Shown here piece after piece: positions 39,923 to 52,179 of a DNA stretch of 64,000 nucleotides. The DNA comes from Catellatospora citrea (GTDB lineage Bacteria; Actinomycetota; Actinomycetes; Mycobacteriales; Micromonosporaceae). Made by a program: the position numbers and the translations under genes. The stretch lies in NCBI RefSeq assembly GCF_003610235.1, contig NZ_RAPR01000001.1, positions 6,882,001 to 6,946,000 of the forward strand, given 5' to 3'. Under the pieces are notes generated by a model. It was not told the origin of the DNA. It saw only the letters and a list, made by a program, of their open reading frames with translations, and made no database searches. The stretch's first letter is position 1. Each line of letters starts with the position of its first letter.

Positions 39923-41521
39923 ATGGCTGCCATGCTCACCGGTTCGACGACACTACGCCTGGACGATCGCGAACTGCCCGCCGTGTGGCTGCGCGACAAC
40001 TGCCGCTGCGCGCAGTGCGCTGACCCGGTGAGCGGGCAGAAGCTGTTCGGCATCCTGGACCTGCCCGCCGACCTGACCGTCGACGACGCGACCGACGACG
40101 GTACTGACGTGACCGTCAGATTCGCCCCGGACGGCCACGTGTCACGCTTCCCGCGTGCCTGGCTGCTCGCACCGGCGACGCCCGACGAGCGCACCGAGGA
40201 AGGCAAGCAGTTCGGCACCGGCGCTATCGAGGTCGCGTGGGCGGACTTCCGCGACAACCGCACGCAAGCGCTGGAAGCCCTGCTGGTGCGTGGCTTCGTC
40301 CTGCTGCGGGGCGTTCCGGTCGCCGAAGGCGCGGTCCTGGACGTCGCGGCGGAGTTCGGCTACGTCCGCGAGACGAACTACGGACGGATCTTCGACGTGC
40401 GCGTCGAGGACAACGCGACGAACCTGGCGTTCACCGGCCGGGAGATCACCCCGCACACCGACAACCCGTATCGGGACCCGGTGCCCACGGTGCAGCTCCT
40501 GCACTGCCTGGTCAACGCCGCGACCGGCGGCGACTCGGGCCTGGTCGACGGGTTCGCCGCAGCGGCCGTCCTACGGGCGGAAGATCCCGAGGCGTTCGCG
40601 GTGCTCACCCGAACCCCCGTCACCTTCCGCTACACCGACGCAGACACAGACCTCTCGGCCAGCAAGCCACTGATCGGCCTCGACCCGGCCGGGCGGATCC
40701 GTGAGATCCGGTTCAACAACCGGTCGACCCAGCCGCTGCGCGCCCCGCACGCCGACGTGATCGCCTTCTACGCCGCATACCGCACGTTCGCCGAGATCAT
40801 CGCCCGGCCGGCCGGGCGGCTCGACTTCCGCCTCGGACCCGGTGACTGCCTCGTGTTCGACAACACCCGGATGCTGCACGCGCGCACGGCGTTCGCCGAG
40901 GGCGGCGCTCGGCACCTGCAGGGGTGCTACGCCGACCTGGACGCGGTCGCCAGCCGCCGGGCCGTGCTGACCCGCCGGGCGCCCCTGGACCTGCTCGCCG
41001 ACCTGTTCGCAGGCCCGGGCGCCGCGGACTACCTGGGCGAGTCGGTGTCGCAGGCGGCGCACATGCTGCAGGCGGCGTCGCTGGCCGAGGCCGCAGGCGC
41101 GCCCGACGCCCTGATCGCGGCCGCGCTGCTGCACGATGTCGGTCACTTCACCGGCGAGATCAGCGGCGAGGAGCTGATGGCCGGTGTCGACAACCGGCAC
41201 AGCCACGCAGGCGCCGACTGGCTGGCCGCCTGGTTCCCGCCGGCGGTCACCGAACCGGTCCGGCTGCACGTGGCGGCCAAGCGATACCTGTGTGCGGTGG
41301 AGCCGAGCTACCGGGAGCAGCTGTCGCCGGCTTCGGAGTACACCCTGACCGTGCAGGGCGGGCCGATGACCCCGGCGGAGGTCGCCGTGTTCGAGGCACA
41401 GCCGGGCGCGGCCGACGCCGTCGCGGTACGCCGGTGGGACGACGCCGCCAAGGACCCGGGCACGGACGTGCCGGATTTCGCGCACTTCCGGCCGCTGCTG
41501 GAACGCGTCCTGCGCAGGTAG
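39923..41521 (+). CDS. Fused TmpA/TmpB-like organophosphonate oxygenase
   Basis: 532 residues. The N-terminus is a gamma-butyrobetaine-hydroxylase-type zinc domain (C-R-C-A-Q-C-A-D). A 2-oxoglutarate Fe(II) oxygenase follows, with His178-x-Asp180 in TPHTDNPY and distal His319 in RMLHART. The C-terminal part (from about residue 360) is an HD mixed-valence diiron oxygenase: Tyr370-x-x-Glu373, His404-Asp405 (LLHDVGHF), HSHAGADWL, LHVAAKRYL and VRRWDD. TmpA hydroxylates trimethylaminoethylphosphonate and TmpB cleaves its C-P bond; here both are in one chain. An alternative start is ATG 39932. The exact phosphonate is unknown. Confidence 0.85.
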   Translation: MAAMLTGSTTLRLDDRELPAVWLRDNCRCAQCADPVSGQKLFGILDLPADLTVDDATDDGTDVTVRFAPDGHVSRFPRAWLLAPATPDERTEEGKQFGTGAIEVAWADFRDNRTQALEALLVRGFVLLRGVPVAEGAVLDVAAEFGYVRETNYGRIFDVRVEDNATNLAFTGREITPHTDNPYRDPVPTVQLLHCLVNAATGGDSGLVDGFAAAAVLRAEDPEAFAVLTRTPVTFRYTDADTDLSASKPLIGLDPAGRIREIRFNNRSTQPLRAPHADVIAFYAAYRTFAEIIARPAGRLDFRLGPGDCLVFDNTRMLHARTAFAEGGARHLQGCYADLDAVASRRAVLTRRAPLDLLADLFAGPGAADYLGESVSQAAHMLQAASLAEAAGAPDALIAAALLHDVGHFTGEISGEELMAGVDNRHSHAGADWLAAWFPPAVTEPVRLHVAAKRYLCAVEPSYREQLSPASEYTLTVQGGPMTPAEVAVFEAQPGAADAVAVRRWDDAAKDPGTDVPDFAHFRPLLERVLRR

Positions 41522-43714: not shown

Positions 43715-44659
43715 ATGAACGGGCTCTACATCGGATCGTTCGCCCACGCGCTGGGCGCGCAGAAACGGCACCTACGCGAGTCCGCCGAGGCGGGACTGCT
43801 CCGGTCGGCTCCGCAGGACCTGGAGGCGGCCGGTTTCGGCTGGCACCACGTCTGCGACCCGGACGGCACCGCGTACGACCTGGCCCGTGCGGCGGTAGCG
43901 CAGATCGCGGCCCGCGGCGACCTCTCCGACGTCGACGCGATCGTCTACGCCACCTGCCTGCCCGACGCCCAGACCGGGTCCGGTCCGGTCCGTGACGTGA
44001 AGGACCTGATGGACTTCCCGGCCGGCCGGCTGCAGGCCGAGTTCGGCATGTCCCGGGCGATCGTGGTCGGGCTGCATCAGCAGGCCTGCACCGGTGTGCT
44101 CGGGGCGCTGCGGGTGGCGGGCGCGCTGCTGGCGACCGAACCTGGCTGGCGGCGGGTGCTGTGCGTGACCGCCGACCGGTTTCCCGCCGGGGCCTGGTAC
44201 GAGCAGGCGTACAACCTGATCTCGGACGGGGCCGCGGCCTGCGTGGTCGGCCGGGACCCGGACATGTGCCGACTGCTGAGCGTGCACCAGATCAGCAACG
44301 GCGGCCTGGGCCGGGCCGGCGACGACGAGACCGTCGGCACCTACTTCGCCTACACGCACCGGCTGGTCCGCGAGGCCGCGGCCCGCGTCGGGATGACCCC
44401 GGCCGAGCTGGACTGGGTCGTCACCCAGAACATGCACGACAAGGCGTGGCAGATCCTCGCCCGCCTACTGGATGTCGACCACGCCCGGGTCTGGGCTCCG
44501 ACCCTGGCCGACGTCGGGCACGTCATCTCGGCCGACGCCGTGGTCAACCTGTCGGCGCTGCTCGACTCGGGGCAGGCCCGGCCAGGGCAGCGGATCGCGG
44601 TGCCGGTGGCCGGTTTCGGGCTGAACTGGCAGTGCGCGGTGCTGGAGGTGGCCCGATGA
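43715..44659 (+). CDS. KAS III-like (FabH/CerJ-type) acyl synthase or acyltransferase
   Basis: About 314 residues; ATG 43706 and 43673 are in-frame alternatives. It has the thiolase fold with the nucleophile in HQQACTGVLGAL. The FabH PHQAN histidine region reads TQNMHDKAW and the GNTSAAS region reads VGHVISADAV, so the canonical Cys-His-Asn triad is altered. Similar shifts occur in KASIII homologues that transfer rather than condense acyl groups. It is the first gene of a seven-gene coupled operon; its stop overlaps the next start (ATGA). Confidence 0.85.
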   Translation: MNGLYIGSFAHALGAQKRHLRESAEAGLLRSAPQDLEAAGFGWHHVCDPDGTAYDLARAAVAQIAARGDLSDVDAIVYATCLPDAQTGSGPVRDVKDLMDFPAGRLQAEFGMSRAIVVGLHQQACTGVLGALRVAGALLATEPGWRRVLCVTADRFPAGAWYEQAYNLISDGAAACVVGRDPDMCRLLSVHQISNGGLGRAGDDETVGTYFAYTHRLVREAAARVGMTPAELDWVVTQNMHDKAWQILARLLDVDHARVWAPTLADVGHVISADAVVNLSALLDSGQARPGQRIAVPVAGFGLNWQCAVLEVAR

Positions 44660-45537
44660 GCGCGCTGGCCAGCGCCCTGGCGCAGGTGTCGCAGACCGCG
44701 GACCGGCTCAGCCGGCTGTCGGTGCGGGCGCACCAGAACCCGTACACCCTGGTCGACTGGCCGTCGGCGGTCGACCCGGAACGGGACTGGTTCAGCACCC
44801 CGGAGTACGTGAGCCTGCACGGCACCGCCGTGTGGGCGGCTTTGGACGACGGAGCCCGGCACCGGGTCGCGTTCCATGAGGCGGCCGGTTTCTACAGCCT
44901 CAACATCCACGGGGAGAAGACGCTGATACAGGGCCTGGCGGCGCGGCTCTACCGCACCGACCTGGCCGGCGCGGCCGGCTACCTGCACCACTTCCTGGAC
45001 GAGGAGAACAAGCACAGCGTCTACTTCGGCGGCTTCTGCACCCGGTACGCGCGGGTCCACCGCAGCCGCCAGGCGCCGTGGCGCACCGACCGGCCGCGCG
45101 ACGTCGACGACTTCCTGTTCTTCGCCAAGACGCTGATATTCGAGGAGATCGTGGACCACTACAACCGGGTCCAGGCCCGCGACACGCGGCTGCACCCGCT
45201 GGCCCGTTTCATCAACGACAACCACCACCGCGAGGAGGCCCGGCACCTGGTGTTCGGCCGCCGCCTCGTGACGGAGCTGTGGCGGGAGGGGGACTGGGAC
45301 GCCCCGACCGCCGCCGAGATCCGCGACGACCTCGCCCGGTTCGTGACCGCGACCTGGCGCGAATACTACCACCCCGACGTCTACGCCGATGCCGGGCTCG
45401 ACGACCCGTGGGAGCTGGCGGAGGCGGCCTGGTCCGCGCCCGACCAGCGCGCCCACCGGCGCCGGGTGTCGGCGGACTGCCTGCGGTTCCTGGCGGCGGC
45501 CGGGATCCTGACCGAGGAGCCGGCCGATGCGTTCTGA
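44656..45537 (+). CDS. AurF-like diiron oxygenase (putative amine N-oxygenase)
   Basis: 293 residues, all helical by appearance. A complete diiron ligand set in ferritin-like order is visible: Glu in HGEKTLI, E-x-x-H in DEENKH, Glu in FEEIVDHYN, and H-x-x-x-E-x-x-H in HHREEARH. This seven-ligand pattern is that of AurF-type N-oxygenases, which oxidise amines to hydroxylamine, nitroso or nitro groups. In this operon the substrate could be an amino acid held on the next-encoded ACP; that is inference. The start is within the ATGA overlap and the 3' end overlaps the ACP gene by 11 nt. Confidence 0.85.
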   Translation: MSALASALAQVSQTADRLSRLSVRAHQNPYTLVDWPSAVDPERDWFSTPEYVSLHGTAVWAALDDGARHRVAFHEAAGFYSLNIHGEKTLIQGLAARLYRTDLAGAAGYLHHFLDEENKHSVYFGGFCTRYARVHRSRQAPWRTDRPRDVDDFLFFAKTLIFEEIVDHYNRVQARDTRLHPLARFINDNHHREEARHLVFGRRLVTELWREGDWDAPTAAEIRDDLARFVTATWREYYHPDVYADAGLDDPWELAEAAWSAPDQRAHRRRVSADCLRFLAAAGILTEEPADAF

Positions 45538-45772
45538 GACCGAGATCCGCGCGCAGTTGCGCGCCTTCGTGCAGCGCCACGCCGGGGGAGTCGCCGTCAC
45601 CGACGACACGGCGCTGTTCACGCTGCGGGTGCTGCGTTCGGTGCACCTGCCCGAGCTGATCATCCTGCTGGAGCGGCTGCGCGGCGCGCCCATCGACGTC
45701 GAGCAGCTGCGCATCGGCGACTTCGACGGCATCGATGCGATGATGGCGCGCTTCGGGGCGGGGCAGCCGTGA
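45527..45772 (+). CDS. Acyl/aminoacyl carrier protein
   Basis: 81 residues with GAGGAG upstream. The attachment site reads VLRSVHLPELI, the Ser taking the place of DSL; TDDTALFTL before it and the following helix LLERLRG match carrier proteins. It lies between the diiron oxygenase and the SerRS-like ligase genes and is the probable partner of both. GTGA overlap with the ligase gene. Confidence 0.85.
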   Translation: MRSETEIRAQLRAFVQRHAGGVAVTDDTALFTLRVLRSVHLPELIILLERLRGAPIDVEQLRIGDFDGIDAMMARFGAGQP

Positions 45773-46650
45773 CCGCGCCGACTGATCTGGCCCGGATCGG
45801 GCTGCGCTGGGACCCCAGTGGCCAGGCCGGGCTGACCGGGCCGCTGCTGGCGCTCGCCGACGACTGCGACCGCGCCCTGCGGACCATCGCGAGCCGGTGG
45901 GGGTCACGGGAGGAGGCGTACGCGGCGACGCTGCCCGCCTCGTCCCTGCACGGGCACCTGCGGTCCTTCCCGCACCAGGTCACGTTCGCGACGAGTCTCG
46001 ACCCGGCCGACGCCAACCTCGGCGACTTCACCGACGGGCCGGTCGTGGACCCGTCCGGGGCGGTCGCGTTGACCCGCACCGCCCCGGTGACCGCCGTGCT
46101 CACCCCCGCGGCCTGCCATCACGTCTACCACGCCCACCAGGGGGAGCAGTTGCTCGCAGCCGTCCACGTGACCACCCGCAACACCTGCTTCCGGCGGGAG
46201 TCGAGCTACGAGCCGCTGCGCCGCCAGTGGACCTTCGCCATGCGGGAGATCGTGTGCCTGGGCACGGCCGAGGAGACCACGTCGTTCCTGGCGCAGGCCC
46301 GTGCCGCGGTGGACTACTTCACCCTGCTGATCGACCTGCCGACGGACTGGACACCGGCGACCGACCCGTTCTTCCGCCCCGAACGCCACCCCGGGCACCT
46401 CCTGCAGCGCATCCAGCCGGTCAAGCACGAGGCCGTCTACGGCGGCTCGCTGGCCCTCGGCTCGGCCAACCTGCACCACGACCACTTCGGGTCCGCGTAC
46501 GCCATCACCCGCGACGGCGTCCCCGCCGACACCGCCTGCATCGCGTTCGGGCTCGAACGCTGGCTGTACGCGCTCGTCGACCGGCACGGCCCGGACCCCG
46601 GCGGCTGGCCGGACCTGCTCGCCGCGGCCCGGCAGGTGGCGGCCCGATGA
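45769..46650 (+). CDS. SerRS-like amino acid:[carrier protein] ligase
   Basis: 293 residues from a GTG in the ACP stop. It has a class II aminoacyl-tRNA synthetase core without a tRNA-binding arm. Motif 2 is around FRRESS...WTFAMREIV and motif 3 is IAFGLERWLYAL. The zinc ligands expected for this family are Cys116 (AACHHVY), Glu160 (MREIV) and Cys257 (TACIAFG), with spacing like the known bacterial aa:CP ligases. Those enzymes adenylate small amino acids (Gly, Ala) and load them on a carrier protein rather than tRNA. Here the ACP next door is the obvious acceptor. Confidence 0.88.
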   Translation: MTAPTDLARIGLRWDPSGQAGLTGPLLALADDCDRALRTIASRWGSREEAYAATLPASSLHGHLRSFPHQVTFATSLDPADANLGDFTDGPVVDPSGAVALTRTAPVTAVLTPAACHHVYHAHQGEQLLAAVHVTTRNTCFRRESSYEPLRRQWTFAMREIVCLGTAEETTSFLAQARAAVDYFTLLIDLPTDWTPATDPFFRPERHPGHLLQRIQPVKHEAVYGGSLALGSANLHHDHFGSAYAITRDGVPADTACIAFGLERWLYALVDRHGPDPGGWPDLLAAARQVAAR

Positions 46651-47690
46651 CCACGCTGATCACCGGAGCGGACGGCTACCTCGGCCGGCGGATCACCGCC
46701 GCGCTGCGCGGTGAGGACCTGATCCTGGCGGTGCGCTGCGCCGACGAGGCCGAGCTCGACCGCAAACGGGCCCGGCTCGCCCCCGTCGCCGACGCCCCCG
46801 TCGTGCCGGTCGACCTGTGCGACGCCGACCCGTTCGCGCACGTGGACCCCCGGCCCATCACCCGGATCATCCACGCCGCCGCCCTGATCCGCTTCGACGT
46901 CAGCCGCGACAGCGCCGACCAGGTCAACGTCGCCGGCACGGCGCGCGTACGCGACTTCGCGCAACGCTGCGACCGGCTCGACCGGCTCATGCTGCTGTCC
47001 ACGCTGTACAGCGCCGGACGGCGCCGCGGCGAGGTCCACGAGACCCGACACGACGACACCGGATTCGTCAACCACTACGAATGGTCGAAGTGGGCCGCCG
47101 AGCAGTGCCTGCTCGACGCGCCGGGACTGCCGGTGACGGTGGCACGCGTGCCGACGGTGATCGCCGAGGACGCGGGCGGGGCCGTCGCCCAGTACAACGC
47201 GTTCCACCACACGATGCGGCTCTACCACGCCGGGCTGCTGACGCTGCTGCCCGGCGACCCGGCGACGCCGCTGAGCCTGGCCACCGCGGAGTTCACCGTC
47301 GACGCCGTGACAGCACTGCTCGCCGCCCCACCGGGGATCTACCAGATCTGCTCCGGCCCCGTGAACCTCGGCACCGCGATCGACACCGCCTTCGCCGTCT
47401 TCGAACAGGATCCCGGCTTCCGCCGGCGGATGCTGCCCCGCCCGATCCCCTGCGACCGGGCCGGCTTCCGCGACCTGGCACAGGCCGCCCGGCAGCTGCG
47501 CGGCGGCTCGCTGCAACCCGCGCTCGCGTCCGTCGCACCCTTCGCCGAACAGCTCTACCTGCCCAAACACTTCCGCACCGACCGCCTTCGCGCGGCGTGG
47601 CCCGGATATCGGATGCAGGACGCCACAGCCCTGGTCGCGGCGGCGTGCACCGACCTGATCAAGAGGAGCTTCCATGTCACCGCGCACTGA
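46647..47690 (+). CDS. Thioester-reductase-like NAD(P)-dependent SDR
   Basis: 347 residues. Extended SDR of the NAD_binding_4 (male-sterility/thioester reductase) type: TGADGYLGRRI binds the cofactor, with a Ser in LLSTLYSAG and Tyr/Lys in YEWSKWAAE. Such domains release carrier-bound thioesters as aldehydes or alcohols. It is coupled by ATGA to the ligase gene and overlaps the next gene by 17 nt. A nucleoside-diphosphate-sugar epimerase is a less likely alternative. Confidence 0.82.
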   Translation: MTTLITGADGYLGRRITAALRGEDLILAVRCADEAELDRKRARLAPVADAPVVPVDLCDADPFAHVDPRPITRIIHAAALIRFDVSRDSADQVNVAGTARVRDFAQRCDRLDRLMLLSTLYSAGRRRGEVHETRHDDTGFVNHYEWSKWAAEQCLLDAPGLPVTVARVPTVIAEDAGGAVAQYNAFHHTMRLYHAGLLTLLPGDPATPLSLATAEFTVDAVTALLAAPPGIYQICSGPVNLGTAIDTAFAVFEQDPGFRRRMLPRPIPCDRAGFRDLAQAARQLRGGSLQPALASVAPFAEQLYLPKHFRTDRLRAAWPGYRMQDATALVAAACTDLIKRSFHVTAH

Positions 47691-48816
47691 GACACCACAG
47701 CGCCCGCCGGCGGCACGGCAGCCGGCACTGGTGCGGCGGATCGAACTGCCCGGCGCCGCCGACGACCGGCTGTACTTCGCCCAGGTCCGCGAGGACCCGG
47801 AGCTGGAGATCGCCGCGTTCGCCGCGCGGTGGGACGGCCCGATCGCCGTGGTCAGCTCCGCCGGCTGCACGGCACTGTCGCTGCTCGCCGCGGGTGCGGC
47901 CGAGGTCGTCGGCGTCGACGTCAACCGGACCCAGAACCACCTCGTCGAACTGAAAGCGGCCGCGGTCGCGCACCTGGCACCCGGCGCGGCCCTCGGGCTG
48001 CTCGGCGGCGTCCCCATGGCACCGGCCGCACGGCGGCAGGCATACGACCAGATCCGGGACCGGCTCACCGCCGGGGCACGCGACTACTGGGACGCGCACC
48101 CGCAGGCGATCGAGCGCGGAGTGCTGCAGGCGGGGGTCACCGAGCGGCTGATGCGCCTGATCGCCCGAACCCTGCGCGTGGTCCACCCCCGCCGGATCGA
48201 GACCCTGCTGGCCCTGCCGACCCTCGACCACCAGCGGGAGTTCTACCGCCGGGACTGGGACACCCTCGGCTGGCGGCTGCTGTTCGCAGTGCTGTGCAAC
48301 CGGCTGGTGCTGCGGCGCACCTACGACGAACGGTTCTTCGCCCACGTCGAGAACCCCAGCTACGCCCGGCACTTCCGCCAGGTCGCCGAGCACACGCTCA
48401 CCGACCTGGACATCGGCGGCAACTACTTCCTGCACCACCTGCTGACCGGCGCCTACCCGGCGGCAAGCCGCCCGCCCTACCTGGACGCACCGGTGCCGGT
48501 CGACCGCCTGCGGCTGGTCGACGGCGGCTTCACCGACTATCTGCGTACGCGACCCGACCGCAGCATGGCCGGATTCGCCCTGTCCAACATCTGCGAATGG
48601 CTGACCGCCGACCAGATCGACGAACTGTTCGCCGAGATCGTCCGCACGGCCCGGCCGGGCGCCCGCCTGGTCTTTCGCAACTTCGTCGGCTGGACCGAGG
48701 TGCCGGCGCGCTGGCGCGACGCCGTCCGGGAGGACCGGGCGCGCGGCGAGGAGCTGATGCGCACCGACCGCAGCCTGTGCCAGCGGCGCTTCGCCCTGTG
48801 CGAGGTGACGCCGTGA
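47674..48816 (+). CDS. BtaA-like (DUF3419) 3-amino-3-carboxypropyl transferase
   Basis: 380 residues, AGAGGAG before the ATG. It has an N-terminal SAM-binding Rossmann segment (VVSSAGCTALSLLAAG, then VVGVDVN) and the DUF3419 motif D-I-G-G-N-Y-F-L-H-H-L-L, plus F-A-L-S-N-I-C-E-W. In BtaA this fold moves the aminocarboxypropyl group of SAM to diacylglycerol. Here no BtaB methyltransferase is present, so a natural-product acceptor is more likely than a betaine lipid; that is inference. Confidence 0.85.
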   Translation: MSPRTETPQRPPAARQPALVRRIELPGAADDRLYFAQVREDPELEIAAFAARWDGPIAVVSSAGCTALSLLAAGAAEVVGVDVNRTQNHLVELKAAAVAHLAPGAALGLLGGVPMAPAARRQAYDQIRDRLTAGARDYWDAHPQAIERGVLQAGVTERLMRLIARTLRVVHPRRIETLLALPTLDHQREFYRRDWDTLGWRLLFAVLCNRLVLRRTYDERFFAHVENPSYARHFRQVAEHTLTDLDIGGNYFLHHLLTGAYPAASRPPYLDAPVPVDRLRLVDGGFTDYLRTRPDRSMAGFALSNICEWLTADQIDELFAEIVRTARPGARLVFRNFVGWTEVPARWRDAVREDRARGEELMRTDRSLCQRRFALCEVTP

Positions 48817-49853
48817 GAGTCCGCGACGCCCGCCCCGAGGACAACGGGGCCCTGGTCGACCTGGCGGCCCGCTGCTCGATGGCAGGCGACCTGTCGCTGT
48901 GCATCGACCGGCGACCCGACTTCTTCGCGCTCAACCGCATCGCCGGCCAGACCTGGCGGGTCGGGGTCGTCGACGGCGACGACGGACCGATCGCCTGCGT
49001 CGCCGTCGCCCGCCGGCCCTCCTACATCGACGGCCACCCGGCCCAGCTCGGCTACGTCGGCGACCTCAAGGTGCACCCGGCGCACCGGCGGCGCGGCGCG
49101 GCCCGCGTCCTGGCGCAGTGGGCGCACGACGCCGCCCGGGAACTGGCCGGCCCGCACGCACCGCTGATCGGCACCGTGCTGGCCGGCAACGACGCCGTCG
49201 ACATGCTGCGCCGCCAGGTCGAACCCGGCGTACGCCGCCGGGCCACCATCAGATCGCACAGCATCGACCTGCTCACCCGCCGACGCATCCCACCCGGCGA
49301 CCTCACCGTGACCACGGTCGCCGCCGCGGACGAGCCCGACATGGTCGAGCTGTGGCACCGACTGGCCGCGCCGCGCCAGTACGCCCCGACCTGCGAGTCG
49401 TTCCCGCTCGACCGACCGGACCTGGACTACCTGGTGGCCCGGCGACCCGGCGGCGAACTCGCCGGGTTCGTCGGTCTGTGGAACCAGCACGACATCAAGC
49501 AGATGCGCGTCACCGGCTACTCGACCAGGCTGGCCGCGGCCCGGCTCGCCTTCAACGTCGCGGCCCCGCTGCTGCGGGCGCCACGCCTGCCGCGCTCGGG
49601 CGAGGAACTGAGCTACCGCACGGTGGTCAACCCGTGCGCGCCCGACCCGCAGACGCTGCGCACCCTGCTCCGGCACGCCTGCAACCGGCTGCACGGGCAG
49701 CACTCGTTCCTCACCATCGGCCTGGACGTCCGCGACCCGCTGGCTGCCGCGCTGACCGGGCTACGGGCGCAGCCCACCGACGTCGACCTGCTCTTGCTCG
49801 GCGGACCGGCCGACCAGGACACGCCCGTGCACTTCGAGATCGCCACGGTGTAG
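48813..49853 (+). CDS. GNAT-family acyltransferase (duplicated GNAT-like)
   Basis: 346 residues from a GTG in a GTGA overlap. The N-terminal GNAT domain has V-G-D-L-K-V-H-P-A-H-R-R-R-G-A-A for acyl-CoA. The C-terminal half looks like a second, degenerate GNAT unit. It is the last gene of the operon, followed by a terminator, and probably acylates an amino group late in the pathway. Confidence 0.82.
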   Translation: MRVRDARPEDNGALVDLAARCSMAGDLSLCIDRRPDFFALNRIAGQTWRVGVVDGDDGPIACVAVARRPSYIDGHPAQLGYVGDLKVHPAHRRRGAARVLAQWAHDAARELAGPHAPLIGTVLAGNDAVDMLRRQVEPGVRRRATIRSHSIDLLTRRRIPPGDLTVTTVAAADEPDMVELWHRLAAPRQYAPTCESFPLDRPDLDYLVARRPGGELAGFVGLWNQHDIKQMRVTGYSTRLAAARLAFNVAAPLLRAPRLPRSGEELSYRTVVNPCAPDPQTLRTLLRHACNRLHGQHSFLTIGLDVRDPLAAALTGLRAQPTDVDLLLLGGPADQDTPVHFEIATV

Positions 49854-49888: not shown

Positions 49889-49919
49889 CGCCGTGGTCGG
49901 TCGGATGCCGACCACGGCG
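49889..49919. terminator. Terminator ending the seven-gene operon
   Basis: A perfect 12-bp stem (49889-49900 with 49908-49919), 7-nt loop, between the GNAT (+) and methyltransferase (-) genes; it can serve both directions. Confidence 0.75.
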
Positions 49920-49958: not shown

Positions 49959-50735
49959 CTATTGCCGGCTGGGCCGCAGCTCGGCCCGCAACTGCAGGAA
50001 CCGGAACACACCGGGTCGGCCCACAACCGTCTGATACCTGTCGACGACGGCGTCGACGAACGCGGGAACGTCCGCGGCCGGCAGGCGCGACGCCCAGTCC
50101 GAGAACCCGACCGTGCACCACTGCGCGAACTGCTCACGCGAGCCGAAGTCCCATTCGCGGTCGACGACCGACTGATCGGTGACCTTCAGGCCCGCGCCGC
50201 CCGCGATCGCGGGCAGGTCATCGGGCTGGATGTGCACGAACGGCGGCGTGAAGCCGTCGAACGCGGTTACCCAGCGCGGATCGTGCGTCACCTCCATCGC
50301 GACGCCCTCGACGCTTCGGCGAGGACCGCCGCAGACGAACTGCACGAGTGCTCGGCCGCCGGGGGTCAGCGCCGCCGCGATGTTGCGGTACGCGGTCTGC
50401 TGGTCGGTCACCCAGTGCAGTGCGTTGAACGAGACCACGAGGTCGAAGTCCGGCCCGTACGCCATGGTGGTGACGTCACCGACCTCGAATGACACGTTCG
50501 TCAGCTGGTCATCGGCGGTGCGAGCCGTCTCGATCATCCGTGGTGACGGGTCGACGCCGAGGACGGAGCCGTCCGGCACCCGTGACGCGATCAGCCGCGT
50601 CACGTACCCGTCGCCGCAGCCCACGTCGAGCACATGCTCGGTGCCCGCGACCTCGACAGACTCCAGGCAGGCCGTCGCCATCGCACGCTGCAGGCCGCTG
50701 ATGTGCGCGTACCCGGCACCGTCCCAGTCGGCCAT
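49959..50735 (-). CDS. Class I SAM-dependent methyltransferase
   Basis: 258 residues with motif I HVLDVGCGDGYVT, the acidic VDPS after beta-2, and F-D-L-V-V-S-F-N-A-L-H-W, typical of the trans-aconitate/UbiE-like group. GGGAG precedes the ATG. Soluble; substrate unknown. It is convergent with the seven-gene operon and may or may not relate to it. Confidence 0.88.
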   Translation of the reverse strand: MADWDGAGYAHISGLQRAMATACLESVEVAGTEHVLDVGCGDGYVTRLIASRVPDGSVLGVDPSPRMIETARTADDQLTNVSFEVGDVTTMAYGPDFDLVVSFNALHWVTDQQTAYRNIAAALTPGGRALVQFVCGGPRRSVEGVAMEVTHDPRWVTAFDGFTPPFVHIQPDDLPAIAGGAGLKVTDQSVVDREWDFGSREQFAQWCTVGFSDWASRLPAADVPAFVDAVVDRYQTVVGRPGVFRFLQLRAELRPSRQ

Positions 50736-50994: not shown

Positions 50995-52179
50995 ATGGCT
51001 GACGCCGACATACACGAGATCGCCCCGAACCTCTGCGTCATCGAGGGCCACCACCCGCACCGCATGTGGGAGGACCCGGATATCCCGACCATCGCGGTCT
51101 ACCGCGGCGCGTCGACTCTCTACCTGCTCGACACCGGCGTCGGCCCGCAGCAGCGAAGCTCGATCCTCGCCGCCGCGCAGAAGCACGGGCCCGCCGACGA
51201 ACTGATCATCCTCTCCAGCCACGGGCACATCGACCACCTCGGCAACAACGACGTCGTCGACGACATCGCAGCGACCAGCAAACGGAACTACTTCCCGCGC
51301 GCCGGCCGGCCCGGACTCGAACCCAAGACGTTCTTCCGGGCGATGTACGAGCGCGGCGCACCGTATTTCGACTACCTCGACGGCCTGGACCTCGACGCGG
51401 ACACGGTCAGCTCACTGCTGCGCGGCATCGGCGCCGACCCCCGGGCGACGCCGGACGCCATCGCCCACCTCGGCGATGCCGTCGAGGCCGCCGGTGTCGT
51501 CCCGGCGATCTCGAAACTGCTGCCCGGGCTCGTCGTCGACATTCTGATGAGCACCTACCCGCCCGTGAACATCCGTGCCGAAGCGATCCACGACTACGAG
51601 GAACTCGGCCCCCCACGCGACATCACGATCGGCCGGACCATGTGGCGCGGATGGATCTTCGGCGGCGGCGAGGTCCACGTCTTCCAGACCGGGGGCCACT
51701 CGGCGGGAGGCTGCGTCTTCTACCTCCCCGAGCATCGTTTCCTCATGTTCGCAGACGAGACGACCGGCATCCCCATCTGGGCGGACAGCGACCCCGCCAA
51801 CACGATCCGCACGATGCGCGGCGCACTGGAGATGATGGACTCCGGCCACCTCAGCACCGTGTGCGCGGGCCACCGCCCCATGCTGCCCCAGTCGAACGAC
51901 GAGGCACGCGCCACGCTCAACGGGGTCATCGCAGGCGCGGAGGAGTTCACGGCGACCGTGCGCGACGGCATCGCTGAACACCCCGACGGTGTATGCATCG
52001 ACGAGCTCTACGCCGAACTGGTCGCGGCCGCCGCACCCGACTCGATGATCTTCGTGTTGAAACGGCTCCAGTTCCCGGTCTTCGCGACCTTCCTCAAGCT
52101 GACGCTGGCCAACGAGTGCCTTCTGCGGGGCTATCGGCAGGGCCGCGACGACAGAGGCCGCATCACGTTCCGCGCCTGA
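50995..52179 (+). CDS. Metallo-beta-lactamase-fold hydrolase
   Basis: 394 residues, CGGAGGA before the ATG. The metal site SSHGHIDHLGNND (H-x-H-x-D-H) is followed by a His in TGGHSAGG, an Asp in FADETTG and a His in CAGHRPM. A C-terminal helical region of about 90 residues resembles the dimerisation/winged part of alkylsulfatase- or lactonase-like MBLs. The substrate is not evident. Confidence 0.88.
   Translation: MADADIHEIAPNLCVIEGHHPHRMWEDPDIPTIAVYRGASTLYLLDTGVGPQQRSSILAAAQKHGPADELIILSSHGHIDHLGNNDVVDDIAATSKRNYFPRAGRPGLEPKTFFRAMYERGAPYFDYLDGLDLDADTVSSLLRGIGADPRATPDAIAHLGDAVEAAGVVPAISKLLPGLVVDILMSTYPPVNIRAEAIHDYEELGPPRDITIGRTMWRGWIFGGGEVHVFQTGGHSAGGCVFYLPEHRFLMFADETTGIPIWADSDPANTIRTMRGALEMMDSGHLSTVCAGHRPMLPQSNDEARATLNGVIAGAEEFTATVRDGIAEHPDGVCIDELYAELVAAAAPDSMIFVLKRLQFPVFATFLKLTLANECLLRGYRQGRDDRGRITFRA

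What the first reader, a model, noticed from the sequence alone, without database searches (positions are those of the whole stretch)
43715..49853. Undescribed seven-gene biosynthetic operon: KASIII-like, AurF-like, ACP, SerRS-like aa:CP ligase, thioester reductase, BtaA-like transferase, GNAT
All seven genes overlap and end at one terminator. The SerRS-like ligase keeps the Cys-Glu-Cys zinc set and lacks a tRNA domain, so it should load a small amino acid on the ACP. The diiron enzyme has the full AurF ligand set and could N-oxygenate that amine. The reductase could release an aldehyde, and the BtaA-like enzyme could add an aminocarboxypropyl group from SAM. This recalls N-N/N-O natural-product logic (a SerRS homologue acts in valanimycin synthesis), but I know of no cluster with this set.
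Basis: partly seen in the sequence, partly recalled or inferred. Interest (0 to 1): 0.9.

Follow-up and report, generated by a model that had tools for sequence, protein, structure and literature searches.

The report
Seven-gene amino-acid N-oxidation biosynthesis operon
Seven overlapping genes in a soil actinomycete look like a compact, uncharacterised assembly line that fixes a small amino acid on a carrier protein, oxidises its nitrogen and caps the product with a piece of S-adenosylmethionine; its five-gene core recurs in many kinds of bacteria, so it may open a new family of natural products.

Summary
Seven + strand genes (43715-49853) overlap by 4-17 nt and end before a perfect 12-bp hairpin without a U-run. 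All are under purifying selection. The block recurs in related genomes with mostly different flanks, so it is the functional unit. Its core (KASIII-like, AurF-like, ACP, SerRS-like ligase, thioester reductase) occurs in 54 of 80 named relatives, from many phyla.

The diiron enzyme-ACP-ligase trio is homologous to cassettes with nitronate monooxygenase or O-methyltransferase, matching the published glycine-derived nitronate pathway (He & Ryan 2021, seen only through citing papers). The KASIII-like enzyme lacks FabH's His/Asn pair and resembles the acyltransferase ChlB3. The 'GNAT' has an N-myristoyltransferase-like fold; 18 of 18 homologues end at the same residue.

New pattern: core loci carry either the BtaA-like gene (with GNAT) or an ICMT-like methyltransferase, never both (17 and 34 of 54; three short contigs have neither).

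Amino acid, oxidation level, acceptor and product are inferred. New variant of a known kind.

The parts
43715..44659 (+). KASIII-like acyltransferase/condensing enzyme (314 aa): Cys125 kept; FabH His244 and Asn274 positions are Gln238 and His269
44656..45537 (+). AurF-like (PF11583) diiron oxygenase (293 aa), putative N-oxygenase of the aminoacyl-ACP
45527..45772 (+). Acyl carrier protein (81 aa), phosphopantetheine Ser38 invariant
45769..46650 (+). SerRS-like amino acid:[carrier protein] ligase (293 aa, GTG start), no tRNA-binding domain, Cys116-Glu160-Cys257 zinc set
46647..47690 (+). Thioester-reductase-like SDR (347 aa), Rossmann motif and Tyr144-Lys148 kept
47674..48816 (+). BtaA-like (PF11899/DUF3419) putative SAM:3-amino-3-carboxypropyl transferase (380 aa; alternative start 47731)
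48813..49853 (+). Tandem GNAT with N-myristoyltransferase-like predicted fold (346 aa, GTG start), conserved free C-terminal Val346
49889..49919 (+). Perfect 12-bp hairpin without U-run, possible terminator shared with the convergent gene at 49959-50735 (-)

Best explanation
The operon is a self-contained biosynthetic cassette. Inferred steps: the SerRS-like ligase adenylates a small amino acid, most likely glycine, and loads it on the ACP. The AurF-like diiron enzyme oxidises the carrier-bound amine to an oxime- or nitronate-level N-oxide, as diiron oxygenases are reported to do in glycine-derived nitronate pathways. The KASIII-like enzyme moves an acyl group by a Cys/His mechanism without malonyl decarboxylation. 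The reductase releases the carrier-bound thioester as aldehyde or alcohol. The BtaA-like enzyme then caps an oxygen or nitrogen of the product with the 3-amino-3-carboxypropyl group of SAM, and the NMT-like tandem GNAT acylates the amine thus introduced, with its C-terminal carboxylate as base. Shown by sequence: the gene set, its conservation as a block, catalytic and ligand residues, co-variation of the core genes, the BtaA-GNAT pairing and fusion, and the mutual exclusion of BtaA and ICMT. Not shown: amino acid, oxidation level, order of steps, acceptor, acyl donor, product.
Against: No activity data. Of the 18 AurF-ligase loci without KS, 10 carry neither NMO nor OMT by homology. NMO never occurs with the KS-type core (0 of 54) and OMT once, so the oxidised nitrogen may differ from a nitronate; ferritin-like diiron oxygenases also do C-H chemistry (passage). 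E87 (AurF E101 position) is Ile in the 14 relatives of the clade that holds the NMO/OMT loci, so the two clades' diiron sites may differ. Two Gemmatimonadetes loci lack an AurF homologue and have other ferritin-like proteins. The relatives were drawn by the ligase, so the sample leans to loci that keep it. NMT resemblance is of fold only (13% identity), other tandem GNATs lead by Foldseek E-value, and no NMT Pfam model hit. BtaA/ICMT exclusion rests on few independent switches and on a quick tree with long-branch warnings. The nearest relative (L021) shares downstream genes, including a methyltransferase-like one, so a role of these in the own genome is not excluded. The empty own-genome search for the ferritin-like partner shows nothing by itself, as the tool says.
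Confidence: 0.5

Rival explanations
1. The diiron enzyme acts on carbon (alpha/beta hydroxylation or desaturation of the carrier-bound residue), so the product is an amino alcohol or aldehyde without an N-O bond, later capped by BtaA and GNAT.
For: Ferritin-like diiron oxygenases as a group do C-H oxygenation and desaturation as well as N-oxygenation (passage); NMO never co-occurs with the KS core (0 of 54) and OMT once; the KS-type clade differs from the clade with NMO/OMT loci at position 87.
Against: The PF11583 match is strong; AurF, CmlI and HamC oxidise nitrogen (passages); the same trio sits beside NMO/OMT in sister loci.
Confidence: 0.2
2. The cassette makes a lipid or signal: the NMT-like GNAT puts a fatty acyl chain on a SAM-derived amine, analogous in logic to N-acyl-homoserine lactone formation, and the core supplies an unusual head group.
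For: NMT-like fold; extended versions of the cluster carry an AMP-dependent ligase, second ACP, PPTase, ICMT and sometimes MMPL transporter; Bta-GNAT fusions.
Against: In the 10 named loci with the bare seven-gene form none of AMP-ligase, second ACP, PPTase, ferritin-like, ICMT or MMPL was found above 40 bits in the stretch held; donor chain length unknown; acetyl-CoA is equally possible.
Confidence: 0.2
3. The ligase charges tRNA, and a tRNA-dependent transferase passes the amino acid on, as in valanimycin (VlmL/VlmA).
For: Homology to SerRS.
Against: No tRNA-binding region; better match to the aa-[ACP] ligase model than to SerRS (2e-33 versus 2.2e-8); best match among solved structures is an aa:CP ligase; ACP gene adjacent; none of the seven proteins was labelled MprF/VlmA-like.
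Confidence: 0.03

Closest known systems
Glycine-derived nitronate cassettes / enteromycin carboxamide pathway (He & Ryan, Nat Chem 2021; article not held, known here from citations and passages in PMC9967187, PMC12154687, PMC11035981)
   Same: Diiron oxygenase working on glycine bound to a carrier protein; homologous loci here show AurF, a small ACP-sized protein and ligase in a row (L101/L130, L105)
   Different: No NMO in any of 54 KS-core loci and an OMT hit in only one; adds KASIII-like enzyme, thioester reductase, BtaA-like enzyme and NMT-like GNAT. Whether the published clusters use this same ligase family I could not read.
ham/mgo/pvf pathways (fragin, valdiazen; PMC5878181, PMC11659414, passages read)
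   Same: Amino acid tethered to a carrier, AurF-like N-oxygenase (HamC), proposed reductive release
   Different: ham loads valine with an NRPS A-T-R protein and makes a diazeniumdiolate; the seven ham genes described include no SerRS-like ligase, KASIII, BtaA or NMT-like enzyme
Amino acid:[carrier protein] ligases (Mocibob et al. 2010; described in a passage of PMC2922099; PDB 3mey)
   Same: SerRS-like catalytic core, Cys-Glu-Cys zinc set, no tRNA domain, ACP neighbour
   Different: Distant (phmmer 1.8e-22 over 222 residues); characterised members had no AurF-linked pathway that I know of
BtaA / DUF3419 (betaine lipid synthesis)
   Same: PF11899 over residues 31-367
   Different: Not in a betaine-lipid context; paired with GNAT in an ACP-based cluster; acceptor unknown
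Eukaryotic N-myristoyltransferase
   Same: Tandem-GNAT fold over the whole chain; conserved free C-terminus where NMT has its catalytic carboxylate (the NMT mechanism is recalled)
   Different: 13% identity, bacterial, no NMT Pfam match, partner of a SAM aminocarboxypropyl transferase
ChlB3 / CerJ / DpsC KASIII-like proteins
   Same: Fold and, for ChlB3, the Cys, Asn, Gly-His...Asp active-site pattern
   Different: About 20% identity; substrates unknown

Membership tests
aa:[carrier protein] ligase | class-II SerRS-like core without tRNA-binding domain | tested here: met
   NF005479 2e-33 (below its curated cut-off); 3mey 1.8e-22; matches only the C-terminal catalytic part of SerRS models
aa:[carrier protein] ligase | Cys-Glu-Cys zinc ligands (positions recalled for BLL0957) | tested here: met
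   C116, E160, C257 in 80 of 80 rows, mapped through
aa:[carrier protein] ligase | loads Gly/Ala on a carrier protein, not tRNA | not testable with these tools
   needs ATP-PPi exchange and intact ACP mass spectrometry
AurF-like diiron oxygenase (PF11583) | profile match above gathering score | tested here: met
   135 bits against 29.6
AurF-like diiron oxygenase (PF11583) | seven iron ligands (AurF list recalled) | tested here: met
   by alignment; E87 rests on a distant alignment and is Ile in 14 of 73 rows
AurF-like diiron oxygenase (PF11583) | N-oxygenase activity | not testable with these tools
   no assay
Glycine-derived nitronate cassette | diiron oxygenase with carrier protein and loading enzyme | tested here: met
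Glycine-derived nitronate cassette | nitronate O-methyltransferase or nitronate monooxygenase in the cluster | tested here: not met
   NMO 0 of 54 and OMT 1 of 54 KS-core loci; none in the 10 named seven-gene loci. The window's flanking methyltransferase-like gene at 49959-50735 was not compared with the OMT
Decarboxylating KASIII (FabH type) | Cys-His-Asn triad (FabH C112/H244/N274, recalled) | tested here: not met
   Cys125 kept, but Gln238 and His269 stand at the His and Asn positions
BtaA/DUF3419 | PF11899 match | tested here: met
   171 bits against 28.2
BtaA/DUF3419 | aminocarboxypropyl transfer from SAM | not testable with these tools
   inferred from family
N-myristoyltransferase | tandem-GNAT NMT fold | tested here: met
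N-myristoyltransferase | free C-terminal carboxylate as catalytic base | tested here: inconclusive
   C-terminus fixed in 18 of 18, geometry not inspected
N-myristoyltransferase | NMT sequence family match | tested here: not met
   only Acetyltransf and FR47 models hit in Pfam at E up to 0.1
ham/mgo/pvf diazeniumdiolate pathway | NRPS A-T-R loading/release protein | tested here: not met
   separate SerRS-like ligase, ACP and SDR

The most novel reading that the evidence does not exclude
A pathway family spread over many phyla in which a glycine-derived nitronate or oxime on an ACP is the common intermediate. The KASIII-like enzyme uses this strongly acidic carbanion, or its heteroatom, as the acyl acceptor without any malonyl decarboxylation. 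SAM-dependent caps are interchangeable modules on the N-oxide oxygen: methyl by an ICMT-like membrane enzyme, or aminocarboxypropyl by a BtaA-like enzyme followed by N-acylation by a bacterial NMT-like acyltransferase, giving N-acyl-homoserine O-N ethers unknown to me among natural products.
Probability: 0.17. Interest if true: 0.92.

Novelty: new variant of a known kind. Interest (0 to 1): 0.7.

Why it matters
If right, this is a large uncharacterised class of natural products with a shared carrier-bound, probably N-oxidised, small amino acid. It has a small expressible prototype of seven genes, and it would give a new use of BtaA-type aminocarboxypropyl transfer and a bacterial counterpart of N-myristoyltransferase. 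The BtaA/ICMT exchange makes a clear prediction: the two cluster types should make the same core with different SAM-derived caps.

Tried and rejected
Considered and rejected: a tRNA-dependent valanimycin-like route (no tRNA domain, no VlmA-like protein among the seven); denitrification by NMO (NMO in 0 of 54 KS-core loci); a missing partner elsewhere in the genome (ferritin-like partner: no match in the own genome, but the tool warns that such an empty answer shows nothing; ICMT-like: one weak 25% match with a stop inside); N-N bond formation (no supporting gene in the operon).

Limits of the sample: one search kept the best 80 of 120 loci found with two ligase patterns, so counts are of that sample. 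Accessory genes were sought by phmmer within the stretch held, counted above 40 bits; the AMP-ligase family is large, so some of its hits may be unrelated enzymes. Many loci are metagenome-assembled, so their taxon labels are those of the record titles. L072 and L076 carry only part of Bta at a contig end; L099's ICMT hit is partial; L062, L067 and L069 are 6.0-6.6 kb contigs. Rows covering less than 75% or 85% of a profile were dropped before the residue tables and model alignments. The AurF tree is the quick method with long-branch warnings. Part of the output was cut from view. The draw evidently left out the other Catellatospora genomes that hold the block.
Full report
Anatomy. The finding is real at the coordinates given. 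Seven genes on the + strand overlap by 4, 11, 4, 4, 17 and 4 nt: KASIII-like 43715-44659, AurF-like 44656-45537, ACP 45527-45772, SerRS-like ligase 45769-46650, thioester-reductase-like SDR 46647-47690, BtaA-like 47674-48816, GNAT 48813-49853. Pfam and NCBIfam agree with these labels, except that the 81-aa ACP hits no model. The terminator scan found no U-tailed terminator, but a perfect 12-bp hairpin at 49889-49919 (MFE of the stretch -35.2 kcal/mol, z -3.97) lies between this operon and a convergent gene.

It is one unit. A search of 61 genomes with the ligase matched 18, of which 10, own genome included, have a ligase at 60% identity or more. The full seven-gene order was found in seven other genomes, six of the same genus and one of another genus of the family (L021-L027); two further genomes of the genus have the five-gene core without Bta and GNAT (L028, L029). 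The flanks of the block mostly differ from genome to genome; the exception is the nearest relative L021, which shares the window's downstream methyltransferase-like and metallo-hydrolase genes (90 and 88% identity). So the block moves or is kept as a whole. dN/dS against three relatives is 0.12-0.47 for the seven genes (21 comparisons).

How far it spreads. Of the 80 best loci of a scan of one genome per species (120 loci found, 80 kept), 54 have KS-like, AurF-like and ligase genes together, with an ACP in all 54 and the reductase in 52; the other two are cut by the contig end. The order KS-AurF-ACP-Lig is kept in 52; L067 and L069 are rearranged. Record titles include Actinomycetota, Acidobacteria/Vicinamibacteria, Omnitrophota, Nitrospirae, Melainabacteria/Obscuribacterales, Marinimicrobia and several proteobacterial groups; many are metagenome assemblies. 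Pairwise distances of the five core proteins correlate (Spearman 0.81-0.91, maximum of 300 permutations 0.33); shared ancestry contributes to this.

Extended forms. Outside the seven-gene form the core usually comes with a ferritin-like protein of about 195 aa (40 of 54), a second ACP (38), an AMP-dependent ligase (40), a PPTase (34), an ICMT-like methyltransferase (34) and sometimes an MMPL transporter (13) (phmmer above 40 bits within the stretch held). In the ten named loci with the bare seven-gene form (L041-L049, L057) none of these was found. A search of the own genome with the ferritin-like protein found nothing (no proof of absence, as the tool says), and with the ICMT-like protein only one weak, interrupted match.

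Exchangeable caps. In the 54 core loci BtaA-like occurs in 17, ICMT-like in 34, both in 0; the three with neither are contigs of 6.0-6.6 kb. On the AurF tree the switch needs at least three changes (quick tree with long-branch warnings). Both proteins belong to families that alkylate from SAM (family knowledge), so I infer that they cap the same acceptor, with methyl or with aminocarboxypropyl. Counting two Gemmatimonadetes loci without an AurF homologue, BtaA-like is in 19 of 80 loci and the GNAT in 17, always beside BtaA; the two Bta loci without GNAT are cut by a contig end. The two are fused in one open frame in L074, L075 and L081. In the 397 genomes sampled from the order, only the own genome has a close BtaA-like relative; the next best of 8 matches is 31% identical (the other Catellatospora genomes with the block were evidently not in this draw).

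The trio ligase-ACP-AurF. In 18 loci AurF and ligase occur without KS; three of these carry nitronate monooxygenase and six an O-methyltransferase by homology (L101 both), ten neither. The Tistrella mobilis example is annotated as diiron oxygenase, hypothetical protein, ligase-related protein, nitronate monooxygenase, methyltransferase. Papers that cite He & Ryan 2021 describe such chemistry: a diiron oxygenase acting on carrier-bound glycine, O-methylation in enteromycin carboxamide, or denitrification by nitronate monooxygenase (passages in PMC9967187, with the reference; PMC11035981; PMC12154687). The article itself is not held; I recall its abstract only. Hence my reading that the trio oxidises the nitrogen of a carrier-bound small amino acid. 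It is not filed as a nitronate cassette, because NMO is absent from all 54 KS-core loci and an OMT hit occurs in one. The ham pathway (passages) is a second precedent for AurF-like oxidation of a tethered amino acid with proposed reductive release.

Enzyme details. Ligase: zinc set C116, E160, C257 in 80 of 80 rows. AurF-like: E117, H120, E163, H190, E194, H197 in 73 of 73; E87, aligned with AurF E101 through L034's second AurF protein, in 59 of 73, Ile in the 14 rows of the clade that holds the NMO/OMT loci; His85 is conserved in 72 of 73. KS: Cys125, Asn239, His269, Asp274 in 57 of 57 and Gln238 in 55; Gln238 stands where FabH has its His and His269 where FabH has Asn; FabH residue numbers are recalled. 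ChlB3 shares the Asn and Gly-His...Asp pattern and tops the Foldseek list (1.2e-24), but by Z it ties with several KASIII proteins. Reductase: Tyr144 and Lys148 in 56 of 56. GNAT: model pLDDT 92.3; best matches by Z are N-myristoyltransferases (24.4, rmsd 3.6, 296 residues, model 1-345 on NMT 156-496), while Foldseek by E-value puts other tandem GNATs first. All 18 GNATs examined (window and 17 loci) end at the same Val followed by the stop, also in the fusions. NMT uses its C-terminal carboxylate as base (recalled), so the same is inferred here.

Verdict. The trio has a published relative, the core is widespread, and the new and testable pattern is the exchange of a BtaA-NMT-like module for a methyltransferase. 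The searches that listed no paper on the set were made, all limited to open-licence PubMed Central texts.

Noticed in passing
39923-41521 (+): One ORF carries a 2-trimethylaminoethylphosphonate dioxygenase-type N-terminus (NF049936, 417 bits, cut-off 400) and a phosphonate-degradation HD oxygenase C-terminus (TIGR03276, 223 bits, cut-off 214.6): a TmpA-TmpB type fusion.
   Followed up: no
49959-50735 (-) and 50995-52179 (+): A methyltransferase-like gene convergent with the operon (label from reading its sequence, no family search run) and a metallo-beta-lactamase-fold gene follow the block in the window; of the relatives compared only the nearest, L021, has both beside it; a link to the pathway is not excluded.
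   Followed up: partly
AurF-like protein, 44656-45537, residue 87: The position aligned with AurF ligand E101 is Glu in 59 rows but Ile in the 14 rows of the clade that holds the NMO/OMT loci, while His85 is nearly invariant; the first-helix iron ligand may differ between the clades.
   Followed up: partly
L102:1761-8840 and L107:3429-10243: Gemmatimonadetes loci have KS, reductase, ACP, ligase, Bta and GNAT but, in place of the AurF homologue, other ferritin-like proteins: a diiron swap within the same pathway.
   Followed up: partly
L074:3887-6145, L075:304-2565, L081:3969-6239: Natural Bta-GNAT fusions with the GNAT at the C-terminus.
   Followed up: yes
L032 and L035: Another ligase type sits near a KASIII-like gene with other partners; no AurF homologue was found in the stretch held.
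   Followed up: no
L114:6726-14040: AurF-ligase-NMO cassette with class-III aminotransferase, inositol-phosphatase-like and MOSC-domain genes in a Streptomyces lavendulae strain.
   Followed up: no
L105, L108, L109, L113, L120: AurF and ligase with O-methyltransferase and PPTase in Streptomyces; Pfam of L105 shows an AMP-ligase-PCP protein and an NRPS with condensation, adenylation, PCP and thioesterase domains: possible enteromycin-like clusters.
   Followed up: partly
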